Positions 44,577-47,165 of a DNA stretch of 47,165 bases are shown in pieces (position 1 is the first letter of the stretch; each line of letters begins with the position of its first letter). The DNA is from Novipirellula herctigrandis (GTDB lineage Bacteria > Planctomycetota > Planctomycetia > Pirellulales > Pirellulaceae). The position numbers were made by a program, and so were the translations under genes. The notes under the pieces are model-generated. The model made no database searches, was not told where the DNA came from, and worked only from the letters and a program-made list of their open reading frames with translations. The stretch spans positions 7,404,838 through 7,452,002 of the forward strand of contig SJPJ01000001.1 in NCBI GenBank assembly GCA_007859835.1, read 5' to 3'.

Positions 44577-44636
44577 ATGCGACACATGACCATGCCGCGT
44601 TTAAGCATGGCGGAACTGGCCAATGGATTGTCATCG

Positions 44637-46488
44637 ATGAATCAACAAAATCTTTCCTCGTTTATCTGGTCGGTTGCAGACCTCCTGAGAGGGGATTACA
44701 AGCAGTCTGAATACGGCAAGGTGATCTTGCCTTTTACGGTGCTCCGGCGTTTAGACTGCGTTCTGGACCCCACCAAAGAAGCGGTGCTGAAGGAGAAGGA
44801 AAAACGTGAAGCTGCGGGGCTGAATCCGGAACCGTTCCTGCTGAAGAAGTCGAAGTGTTTGTTCTATAACACGTCGCCGCTGGACATTAAGAAACTGATG
44901 GGCGATCAGGACAACATTGCCGAGAACATGTTCTCGTATATCCAGGCTTTCTCACCAGATGTCCGCGACATCTTTGAATGCTTCGACTTCCACACCCAAG
45001 TCGATCGTCTCGCCAAACCCGGCCTGCTGTACATGGTCACCGAGAAGTTCGCCAACGTCGACCTGCACCCCGAAGTGGTTACCAATGAGCAGATGGGCCA
45101 TGTCTTTGAAGAATTGATCCGCAAGTTCGCGGAACTCTCGAACGAAACCGCCGGAGAACACTTCACGCCGCGAGAAGTCATCCGGCTGATGGTCAACTTG
45201 CTGTTCATTGAAGACGACGACGCCCTGACCAAACCCGGCATCGTCCGTTCGTTGTACGATCCGACAGCCGGAACCGGTGGCATGTTGTCGGTGGCCGAAG
45301 ACCACCTCAGCGGTCAAAATCCAGACGCTCGGCTGGTGATGTACGGACAGGAACTCAATGGCGAGTCCTATGCCATCTGCAAAGCCGACATGCTGATCAA
45401 GGGGCAGGACATCAGTAACATCATCCACGGCAACACGTTGTCCGACGATGGCCTGCCGGGTAAGCAGTTTGACTACATGCTTTCCAATCCACCGTTTGGC
45501 GTCGAATGGAAAAAGATTCAGAAGGAAATCAAAAAGGAGCATGCTTCAGACGGCTTCAACGGTCGCTTCGGCCCCGGACTGCCGCGAGTCAGCGATGGTT
45601 CGCTGCTGTTCCTGATGCATCTGATTTCCAAGATGCGCTCCACCAAAGACGGAGGCAGTCGCTTTGGCATTGTCCTGAACGGCTCGCCGCTGTTCACCGG
45701 CAACGCGGGCAGCGGGGAAAGCGAGATTCGCCGTTACGTGCTGGAGAACGATTTACTGGAAGCCATCATCGGTTTGCCGACCGATATGTTTTACAACACG
45801 GGCATCAGCACCTACATCTGGATCGTGACCAACCGCAAGCCTGCCAGCCGCAAGGGCAAGGTGCAGTTGATCGACGCCAGTGCAATGTGGCAGAAGATGC
45901 GAAAGAGTCTCGGCAGCAAACGCAAGGAATTGAGCGACGAACACATTGCCGAGATCACACGTCTGTTCGGCGAAGCCAAGGAAGTTTGGATTGACGAGAA
46001 CACCGGCAAGCGAGTGAAACGCGTATCCGTGAGCGGCACGGCGCTAGCCGCCGGTACTTCACGCAACGGCAAGCCGAAAACACCGGCGGCTAGCGCCTTG
46101 CCGCTCACACAATTCCCATCAGCTGCATCTTCAAGACGACCGACTTTGGCTACCAGACGATCACCGTCGAGCGACCGCTACTTGATGAAGACGGCCAGAG
46201 AGTCCTCGAAACGCGAGGCAAAAAAAAAGGCCAGCCCAAGCCCGACTTCAAACTGCGAGACAGCGAAGAGGTTCCGCTGGGCGAAGATGTGGACGAGTAT
46301 TTCCATCGCGAAGTTGTGCCGCATGTGGCAGACGCTTGGATCGACCACGACAAGACGAAGATTGGTTAAGATATCCATTCAACCGTCACTTCTACGTGTT
46401 CAAACCGCCGAGGGAACTCGATGAAATTGATACTGAACTCAAAGGCGTAACCGATCGCATCGTACAAATGATCGGAGAGTTGTCATGA
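44637..46488 (+). pseudogene. hsdM: Type I restriction-modification DNA methyltransferase subunit, disrupted
   Basis: The first 460 residues are a good HsdM: the helical N-terminus ([27 protein letters not shown]), [14 protein letters not shown], the SAM-binding motif DPTAGTGGM and the catalytic NPPFG of N6-adenine methylases, with [13 protein letters not shown] after. ATG 44637 fits the family start; ATGs at 44577, 44586 and 44592 also exist. At 46029 an 80-bp palindrome interrupts the gene and shifts the frame. The remainder ([32 protein letters not shown]) is readable after it but hits a TAA at 46367-46369, where one base is lost. It then goes on as [24 protein letters not shown] to a TGA at 46486 that overlaps the next ATG. 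Without repair the product lacks its C-terminal domain. Confidence 0.88.
46029..46108. repeat. REP-like palindrome inside hsdM, copy 1
   Basis: Arms 46029-46055 and 46081-46108 are inverted copies (one mismatch) around a 25-base loop. Each arm starts GTGAGCGGCA on its own strand and has the palindromic core GCTAGC. It lies exactly after a codon boundary (TCC ending 46028) and its length, 80, accounts for the frame shift in hsdM. Three more copies lie to the right. Confidence 0.9.
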
Positions 46489-47009
46489 CCGAGCAAGTGA
46501 GCGGCAAGGCGCTAGCCGCCGGTATTTCAGACGCGCCTGATACCATCACACTTTTTATCACTTGGACCACCTATGGCACTTGGCTACCGGGCGATTTACG
46601 TGGCTGGCGGAAATGGAAAGTCGGTCAGCAACAACCGCAGCCATTGCTTGAGGACTGGTGTCGCGACCGCATGAAAGACAAGCCGCTGGCTCTGAACGAA
46701 TCGCAACGCAAGGAAGTGGAAGACATCATTCGACAACACGCATCCATTCGTGGCTGGGAATTGCATGCGGTTTCTGTGCGCTCAAATCACGTTCACGTTG
46801 CAGTTACGGCCTGCGCCCCGCCGAAACGAGTGCGCGATCAATTCAAAGCAAACGGAACCACTGCATTGCGCCGCATGCAGAATCCCGTCACTCACGAAAA
46901 GGTGTGGACAAAAGGCGGAGACATCGAATTCATCGACACCGACGATGATCTGGAACAGGTTGTCATTTACATCACCGAAGCGCAAGACCGCATGGATCGA
47001 GGCAAATGA
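46485..47009 (+). CDS. REP-associated tyrosine transposase (RAYT, Y1/IS200-like)
   Basis: A 174-residue protein of the Y1 HUH group: YGTWLPGD and RGW near the start, the metal-binding SNHVHVAVTA with the HUH pair at about 103-105, and the candidate nucleophile tyrosine in VVIYITEAQD near the end. RAYTs nick single-stranded REP hairpins. The first codons are odd: MTEQ followed by VSGKALAAG, the last being a translated REP arm (copy 2). The ATG overlaps the end of hsdM as ATGA, so it is probably the start codon of the original next gene, hsdS, now used by the element. The size is normal for the family; it looks intact. Confidence 0.82.
   Translation: MTEQVSGKALAAGISDAPDTITLFITWTTYGTWLPGDLRGWRKWKVGQQQPQPLLEDWCRDRMKDKPLALNESQRKEVEDIIRQHASIRGWELHAVSVRSNHVHVAVTACAPPKRVRDQFKANGTTALRRMQNPVTHEKVWTKGGDIEFIDTDDDLEQVVIYITEAQDRMDRGK
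46497..46523. repeat. REP arm, copy 2 (at RAYT start)
   Basis: One 27-base arm starting GTGAGCGGCA with core GCTAGC, the same as the left arm of copy 1 save one base. It has no nearby partner arm and lies in the coding frame of the RAYT gene, right after its fourth codon. Confidence 0.85.
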
Positions 47010-47029
47010 AAATCAGAACACCGATATTT

Positions 47030-47097
47030 GTGAGCCGCAAGACGCTAGCCGTCGGTCCGGATGCGCTGTCACCGGCGGCTAGCGTCTTGCCGCTCAC
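47030..47097. repeat. REP-like palindrome, copy 3
   Basis: Arms 47030-47056 and 47071-47097 with a 14-base loop. Compared with copy 1, the stem has AGACGCT facing AGCGTCT where the other has AGGCGCT facing AGCGCCT: both sides changed together, so base pairing is kept. It begins 21 bases after the RAYT stop. Confidence 0.88.
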
Positions 47098-47140
47098 GGA
47101 CCAGCCGCCCCGCGAGTTGGATAGGATCGAATCGGGCTTT

Positions 47141-47165
47141 GTGAGCCGCAAGGCGCTAGCCGCGG
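47141..47165. repeat. REP arm, copy 4, cut by window end
   Basis: GTGAGCCGCA and the GCTAGC core begin a further copy that leaves the window at its right edge. With copy 3 it gives two units spaced by 43 bases, the layout of a REP cluster (BIME-like). Confidence 0.75.

What the first reader, a model, noticed from the sequence alone, without database searches (positions are those of the whole stretch)
46029..46108. An 80-bp REP palindrome broke hsdM, and removing exactly 80 bp restores the frame
The hairpin starts right after codon TCC at 46026-46028. If 46029-46108 is taken out, TCC is followed by ACA ATT CCC ATC and the HsdM C-terminal sequence ([15 protein letters not shown]) reads in frame. 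So the hairpin appears as a clean insertion with no clear target duplication, which is seldom caught for REP elements. They usually sit between genes.
Basis: seen in the sequence. Interest (0 to 1): 0.75.

Follow-up and report, generated by a model that had tools for sequence, protein, structure and literature searches.

The report
REP hairpin in a decaying hsdM
A short mobile DNA hairpin sits inside a bacterial DNA-methylase gene, beside the transposase that probably moves such hairpins; relatives suggest that this spot in the gene has taken up such pieces before, so it is a familiar kind of event in an unusual setting.

Summary
Window 46029-46108 is an 80-nt inverted REP pair (REPIN) in hsdM, and its ends match the REP family's conserved edges. 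Joining the flanks puts the C-terminal part back in frame. "Exactly 80" is weak evidence: 9 of 41 removal lengths tested do the same, no relative gives a readable empty site because the linker is hypervariable, and the joined frame meets a TAA at 46367-46369, so hsdM has a second lesion. hsdR looks damaged too.

None of 99 related hsdM loci has a REP arm in hsdM (3 mismatches or fewer), but three to four open hsdM genes carry degenerate REP-arm sequence, in frame, at the same linker, so REP arrival there may be old or recurrent. Intragenic REPs are already in print (PMC3733652).

Less ordinary is the neighbourhood. A RAYT transposase starts at the hsdM stop codon, its N-terminus partly encoded by a REP arm, followed by REPs and a second hsdM 3'-end piece. 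The five best-scoring RAYTs in 241 family genomes have hsdM-end pieces beside them (one only 21 residues). In four of these loci an ORF runs from the RAYT stop through REPs into an HsdM end. My searches found no report of this.

The parts
44577..46028 (+). hsdM 5' part: HsdM_N and N6 methylase domains (484 codons)
   Evidence: PF12161 1.1e-26 and PF02384 1.3e-61; dN/dS 0.036-0.079 against five relatives
46029..46108 (.). 80-nt REPIN: two inverted REP arms with a 26-nt spacer, in the linker of hsdM
   Evidence: unit edges
46029..46055 (+). left REP arm; reads V S G T A L A A G in the hsdM frame
46082..46108 (-). right REP arm
46109..46488 (+). hsdM 3' part (first tail copy), out of frame after the REPIN and with a second frame slip at about 46367-46375
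   Evidence: tblastn of a relative's tail breaks into two frames; stop at 46367-46369 when flanks are joined
46485..47009 (+). RAYT (Y1/HUH transposase), open 174 codons; ATG overlaps the hsdM stop (ATGA)
   Evidence: PF01797 2.6e-6, 28 bits against a cut-off of 23; NHVH and YITEAQ motifs; start context
46497..46523 (+). REP arm encoding part of the RAYT N-terminus (VSGKALAAG)
47006..47165 (+). start of an ORF overlapping the RAYT stop and reading through REPs towards an hsdM end; cut by the window end, then by an N gap just beyond
47030..47056 (+). REP arm downstream of RAYT
47071..47097 (-). REP arm downstream of RAYT
47098..47140 (+). 43-nt hsdM-3'-like spacer (PPRELDRIESGF) of the tandem REP array
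47141..47165 (+). REP arm cut by the window end; the array goes on in L009 (units of 123-124 nt, ending in a second hsdM 3' end before hsdS)

Best explanation
The 80 nt are a REPIN of a REP family shared across this planctomycete family. It was most likely mobilised by a RAYT-type Y1 transposase, probably the one encoded 376 nt downstream, and copied as a single-stranded hairpin into the variable linker between the methylase core and the C-terminal tail of HsdM, with no duplication of target bases beyond 1 nt. Because 80 is not a multiple of three, translation would run through the hairpin (27 REP-encoded residues) into the wrong frame and end at 46424, so the tail is lost. The type I operon looks to be decaying (second slip in hsdM, early stop and replaced 3' end in hsdR), so the insertion probably cost little. 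Shown: structure, edges, frame effect, neighbours, absence of the hairpin in the related loci tested. Inferred: transposition by this RAYT, that the insertion was 80 nt long and recent, and the low cost.
For: Hairpin and edges. REP arms are genome-wide repeats: 31 matches in the own genome against 3 for the reversed control, 10 of the 31 in this locus. RAYT and REP go together: 10 of 10 genomes with a RAYT of at least 58% identity have 10 or more REP arms, against 12 of 139 others (my counts, Fisher p 6e-10; both cut-offs were chosen after seeing the counts). 0 of 99 related hsdM loci have a REP arm in hsdM at 3 mismatches or fewer. The hsdM 5' part still shows strong constraint, and the tail's dN/dS (0.10-0.27) is about that of relatives' tails among themselves (0.04-0.26), so the breaks look recent. 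A 71-nt REP pair stands in an open sulfatase gene of the same genome where three homologues have a 21-residue gap, so the family does enter genes.
Against: No empty site can be aligned base for base. REP-like arms at the same linker in relatives allow an older, in-frame resident. The right arm stands within 1 nt of where REP arms join the second hsdM tails of L118 and L120, which favours shared ancestry or recombination over an independent landing. A 13-nt near-perfect direct repeat with a spacing of exactly 80 offers a microhomology route. The tail's dN/dS is higher than that of the 5' part. A run of ten N lies in the REP array about 1 kb downstream.
Confidence: 0.53

Rival explanations
1. 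An older REP, in frame at this linker as REP-coded peptide in relatives, was resident; the reading frame was lost later by a small slip in or beside it. Removing 80 nt would restore the frame just as well.
For: REP-arm-like sequence in frame in open hsdM of L114, L115, L121, at the limit of the shuffles in L118 and below it in L119 and L011; REP right arm joined in frame to second tails in L118 and L120, where the distance to the same codon is one nucleotide longer than in the window; the 71-nt pair in the sulfatase shows that a pair whose length is no multiple of three can stand in an open gene.
Against: The window arms are 96% complementary while the linker arms of relatives are degenerate; the hsdM nearest in the tree (L117, SH-aLRT 83) has an unrelated linker.
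Confidence: 0.27
2. The REP-tail junction came by recombination between REP copies of the RAYT cassette and a REP or a short homology in the linker, joining an hsdM tail from another copy to this hsdM; no transposition of this REPIN was needed.
For: hsdM 3' ends are found on both sides of the RAYT in four loci and on one side in a fifth; a tandem REP/hsdM-end array in L009; hsdM is a mosaic, as L117 and L121 have 98% identical tails but 70-88% identity per 100 columns over columns 100-1000; the 13-nt direct repeat at spacing 80. I raised this rival from 0.13 to 0.15, and lowered the best explanation from 0.55 to 0.53, because of that repeat, which I had first left out.
Against: The window's first tail is not especially close to any second tail; the direct repeat joins linker to REPIN-internal sequence, and removing that stretch would leave a right arm behind.
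Confidence: 0.15
3. Assembly or sequencing artefact: REP-rich sequence misassembled, and the frame slip an indel error.
For: A 10-N gap lies in the REP array just beyond the window; reads were not available.
Against: In the own genome only the window's copy matches the whole 251-base query across the site, the other 18 matches being REP-only pieces, and the RAYT is open; hsdR damage is of other kinds (an in-frame stop and a domain replacement).
Confidence: 0.05

Closest known systems
REPINs, mobile inverted REP doublets with a RAYT (PMC3116915, 2011; passages seen)
   Same: Two inverted REP arms with a spacer, repeated in the genome, a RAYT flanked by the same REPs.
   Different: This copy is inside a gene, and the RAYT lies in a type I restriction operon. 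Sequence relation to the Pseudomonas REP groups was not tested.
Intragenic REPs (GTAG and CGTC REPs, PMC3733652, 2013; passages seen)
   Same: REPs and REP dimers inside coding regions, often as peptides in tolerant places; R. baltica is listed there with REP families.
   Different: Here the copy breaks the frame; the arm foot is GTGAG, not GTAG or CGTC.
Class 3 TnpA-Y1 proteins (PMC6006769; passages and the Class 3 section seen)
   Same: Found principally in Planctomycetes, Acidobacteria and Proteobacteria; NHVH, WT and a Y----Q motif; REPtron-like surroundings.
   Different: Their hairpins have a CnGA foot; these have GTGAG. No hsd linkage is mentioned in what I saw.
Rickettsia palindromic elements (as cited in PMC3733652 passages; otherwise recalled)
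   Same: Palindromes inside protein-coding genes; the sulfatase copy and the linker arms in relatives leave the gene open.
   Different: The window copy is out of frame and has a RAYT beside it.

Membership tests
REPIN | two REP arms in inverted orientation with a short spacer | tested here: met
   sizes of convergent pairs 66-95 nt in G029, 63-82 in own loci
REPIN | arms repeated many times in the genome | tested here: met
   31 matches against 3 control matches in the own genome; 708 in relative G029
REPIN | cognate RAYT flanked by the same REPs | tested here: met
   RAYT-REP association. That this RAYT acts on these REPs was not tested
REPIN | predominantly extragenic | tested here: met
   39 of 42 arms outside non-overlapping ORFs of 150 aa or more in 320 kb of G029 (ORFs by length only); the window copy is an exception
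REPIN | demonstrated mobility | not testable with these tools
   no reads or strains
GTAG REP super-family | GTAG-type unpaired foot at one end of the hairpin | tested here: not met
   foot is GTGAG: 86, 91, 100, 100 and 95% at its five positions in 22 own arms
Class 3 TnpA-Y1 | NHVH, W[TA] and Y----Q motifs | tested here: met
   NHVH, WT, YITEAQ in the window RAYT (motifs from PMC6006769)
Class 3 TnpA-Y1 | associated hairpins with a CnGA foot | tested here: not met
   foot GTGAG
MITE with target-site duplication | direct repeat of target bases at both ends | tested here: not met
   at most 1 nt at the hairpin edges (46028 and 46108 both C); the 13-nt repeat does not lie at the edges
Rickettsia palindromic elements | in-frame insertion that keeps the gene open | tested here: not met
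   80 nt shifts the frame

The most novel reading that the evidence does not exclude
A RAYT-REP unit has become a resident cassette of type I restriction operons in this planctomycete family. It sits between hsdM and hsdS, takes its start codon and ribosome-binding site from the hsdM 3' end, encodes part of its own N-terminus in a REP arm, and carries behind it an ORF that reads through REPs into a second copy of the HsdM C-terminus, which re-creates the coupling to hsdS. REP insertion and REP-REP recombination at the HsdM linker would then be a route by which hsdM tails are swapped.
Probability: 0.3. Interest if true: 0.7.

Novelty: new variant of a known kind. Interest (0 to 1): 0.48.

Why it matters
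REP doublets are known as mostly extragenic repeats, and where and how they land is, from what I saw in print, poorly documented. Here a hypervariable linker in one gene seems to have taken up REP and other palindromic sequence more than once, with open and broken outcomes in different species, and the presumed mobiliser is in the same operon. If the RAYT cassette is resident in type I operons, it links REP dynamics to the remodelling of restriction systems and gives a place to look for REP movement.

Tried and rejected
Exact empty site: looked for in pairwise DNA alignments with seven relatives, and for a REP-bearing hsdM-like gene of G013 in its genus (the one other genome has no homologue at E 1e-60); none could be read base for base.

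A general habit of these REPs to sit inside genes was considered and rejected: in 320 kb of G029, 39 of 42 arms are outside the ORFs.

Low dN/dS of the second hsdM tails (0.039 between L118 and L120) was considered as proof that the tail ORF works on its own; not claimed, because the tails may have been parts of whole genes until recently, and dS there is 1.0.

A single ancestral REP insertion shared by all linkers was not claimed: L119 and L011 score 17 of 27, which 42 of 1440 shuffled linkers reached or passed, and whole-ORF best matches of 19 also occur outside the linker in six ORFs and in 4 of 288 shuffled ORFs.

RAYT tree: 24 of 30 rows sought were recovered, because my search expression missed the rest, among them L217 (G149); the HUH motif printed for L216, L218 and L034 is a wrong match of my expression. 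The branch that groups the REP-led RAYTs has SH-aLRT 80 only.

One search printed 72 for the sulfatase pair, one flanking base too many; it is 71.

The PDB sequence search found HsdM structures, but the best stretches end at residue 450 of the query or before, short of the linker.

Literature: search listings and passages of five papers (PMC3733652, PMC6006769, PMC8266576, PMC3116915, PMC12306157), with one section of PMC6006769. 'RAYT' with 'restriction-modification' (41 papers, 10 listed) and 'hsdM' with 'palindromic' and 'Planctomyc' (1 paper) showed nothing on point in the listings. Only open-licence PMC papers are held, so a missing report is weak evidence.

Full report
What is there. The window lies at G000:C1:7404838-7452002 of a 9.5-Mb genome in 23 contigs. 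hsdM starts at 44577 with HsdM_N and N6-methylase domains. Bases 46029-46108 are an inverted pair of 27-nt arms with 26 nt between; as ssDNA they fold at -37.8 kcal/mol, z -8.5.

The unit. The arm GTGAGC(G/C)GC...GCTAGCCGC(C/G)GGT occurs 31 times in the own genome with up to 3 mismatches, against 3 for the reversed pattern; 10 of the 31 lie in this locus. Among 149 genomes of the family 53 have a match at up to 2 mismatches, with 708 arms in G029 and 679 in G011. Aligned on an inner core, 42 distinct arms of G029, 49 of G013 and 22 of the own loci share a block from the G of GTGAG (this first base 65-86%) to the T of GGT. The best upstream base reaches 52% in G029 and 68% in the own arms; in G013, where arms lie in tandem, flanking bases reach 84%. 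Arm positions 7 and 24 vary together: G-C in 90, C-G in 36 of 143 distinct arms. So the coordinates of the finding are the edges of the repeated unit. In 320 kb of G029, 39 of 42 arms lie outside the non-overlapping ORFs of 150 aa or more: there the family is extragenic as a rule.

Effect on hsdM. As it stands, the ORF 44577-46424 reads through the hairpin and on in the wrong frame. With the flanks joined, the tail [21 protein letters not shown] comes into frame, up to a TAA at 46367-46369; full-length planctomycete relatives have 40-41 more residues. The frame returns for 9 of 41 removal lengths between 60 and 100, and the boundary is ambiguous by one base, because 46028 and 46108 are both C. 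A 13-nt direct repeat with one mismatch (45995-46007, 46075-46087) is also spaced by exactly 80; one of 1439 hsdM 13-mers matches the unit this well. Its right copy belongs to the REPIN, and AACACCGGC of it recurs in two other pairs of the locus. I read it as chance or microhomology; it keeps the recombination rival alive. Further down, the likely hsdR ATG (L009 10500) is followed by an in-frame stop at codon 12, and the ORF that goes on ends in phage-integrase sequence (residues 757-908 of 993). dN/dS of the 5' part of hsdM is 0.036-0.079 and of the tail 0.10-0.27 against five relatives; tails of relatives among themselves show 0.04-0.26. The breaks therefore look recent, though the tail is less constrained than the 5' part.

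Relatives at the same site. One search kept the best 80 of 219 named hsdM stretches, and one search found 54 of 98 genomes with a match. Of 99 such loci tested (L011-L029, L114-L193), only L118 and L120 have REP arms at 3 mismatches or fewer, and these lie around a RAYT, not in hsdM. The linker between LFGEAK and PISRIF is hypervariable: L117 and L121 have tails 98% identical in DNA but unrelated linkers, L117 with a different C/G-rich sequence that has a kin in L126. In the 72 of 83 loci with a full ORF, the best ungapped match of the linker to a REP arm was 22 of 27 (L114), 21 (L115), 20 (L121), 19 (L118), then 18 or less; 1440 codon-shuffled linkers gave 19 once and nothing higher. These four matches, and those of L119 and L011 at 17, have the same orientation and reading frame, but 17 is not significant alone. 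So a few open hsdM genes appear to carry REP remnants in frame at this place; whether their proteins work was not tested.

The neighbour. The ORF 46485-47009 is a Y1/HUH protein (PF01797, 2.6e-6) with NHVH, WT and YITEAQ. It is flanked by REPs, and after ATG ACC GAG CAA its codons are a REP arm (VSGKALAAG). Its ATG overlaps the hsdM stop behind a GGAGAG stretch like a ribosome-binding site. Of 149 family genomes, the 10 with a RAYT of at least 58% identity all have 10 or more REP arms, against 12 of the 139 others (Fisher p 6e-10; counts by me with cut-offs set afterwards, two of the ten standing at exactly 10; test).

RAYT and hsd. A search of 241 family genomes found 37 with a RAYT at E 1e-40 or better. 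Of the 29 RAYT loci then examined (L214-L242, about 1.5 kb on each side where the contig allows), 5 have hsdM 3'-end pieces: the window's, G250 (88% identity), G206 (80%), G149 (76%) and G214 (75%), the five best-scoring; the other 24 have none at E 1e-3. The sixth, G134, lies near a contig end. G206 and G214 have a whole hsdM upstream. In 18 kb of G250 there is a tail piece before and an end piece behind the RAYT and no HsdM N-part; in G149 there is only the end piece behind the RAYT, 21 residues at 62%, which passes E 1e-3 but not 1e-4. In these four loci an ATG at the RAYT stop opens an ORF of 175 (G214), 199 (G206), 62 (G250) and 94 (G149) codons that reads through REPs into GVTDRIVKMIGELS or a close variant; the two other frames are closed. 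In L120 (G206) and G250 an hsdS-like ATG overlaps the end of that ORF, in G250 leading into only 37 codons; in L118 (G214) and G149 no such ATG was seen. In the window the corresponding stretch has a gap of Ns and three repeats of 123-124 nt, and its ORF, as assembled, is broken after 66 codons. Seven RAYTs have a REP arm in frame at the N-terminus (those five, G134, G272). Six of them form one group in a quick tree with SH-aLRT 80; the seventh row was missed by my script. In a draw of 392 genomes of the phylum the only matches at E 1e-58 besides the own were five genomes of one other family, at 58-63% identity; their surroundings were not examined.

Other genes. A sulfatase of the own genome (L072) holds a 71-nt REP pair and stays open, where three homologues of 43-48% identity have a 21-residue gap. 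An hsdM-like gene of G013 carries a single REP arm in frame at another place. This agrees with published intragenic REPs (PMC3733652, passages).

Mechanism. IS200/IS605 transposition acts on single-stranded DNA (PMC8266576, passage); that it leaves no target duplication is recalled, not seen in a call. A REPIN dropped into a tolerated linker without duplication fits this. Because REP arms stand within 1 nt of the same place before the second tails of L118 and L120, an older resident or recombination between REPs is a serious rival; the evidence does not decide between them.

Verdict. The sequence observation is correct. The claim that the REPIN alone broke a working gene as a clean 80-nt insertion is plausible but not shown. 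The insertion itself is a known kind of event; the RAYT-REP cassette with repeated hsdM ends in type I operons is the part that deserves follow-up.

Noticed in passing
L009 10500-13526 (beyond the window): The likely hsdR has an in-frame stop at codon 12 and its 3' end is tyrosine-integrase sequence (PF00589), so the restriction subunit is probably dead.
   Followed up: partly
L055, L066, L067, L069, L079 (own genome): Several REP cores sit inside longer palindromes with outer arms like GCACTGTCTCGT...ACGAGACAGTGC, perhaps a larger MITE-like element.
   Followed up: no
L072 about 1500-1571 (G000:C1:322479-322549): A sulfatase gene that stays open with a 71-nt REP pair inside it.
   Followed up: yes
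L213 13722-13747 (G013): A distant HsdM-like gene with a single in-frame REP arm after WFITKNK.
   Followed up: partly
L117 and L126, hsdM linker: A different C/G-rich palindrome-like sequence (CCCCTCGCCCCG...GAGGGG) stands in frame at the same hsdM linker.
   Followed up: no
L120 5806-6237: Between hsdM and RAYT lies an open stretch that ends in an hsdM-like tail (VTDPIAVMIGEFSQ) directly before the RAYT start, as if a further gene of the operon had its own hsdM end.
   Followed up: partly
L009 8655-10335: A pRiA4b ORF-3-like gene and a Fic-domain gene lie between hsdS and hsdR.
   Followed up: no
L009 7004-7013, just past the window end: Ten Ns in the REP array: copy number and frame there are uncertain.
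   Followed up: no
window 45995-46007 and 46075-46087: A 13-nt direct repeat with one mismatch whose spacing equals the length of the REPIN.
   Followed up: partly
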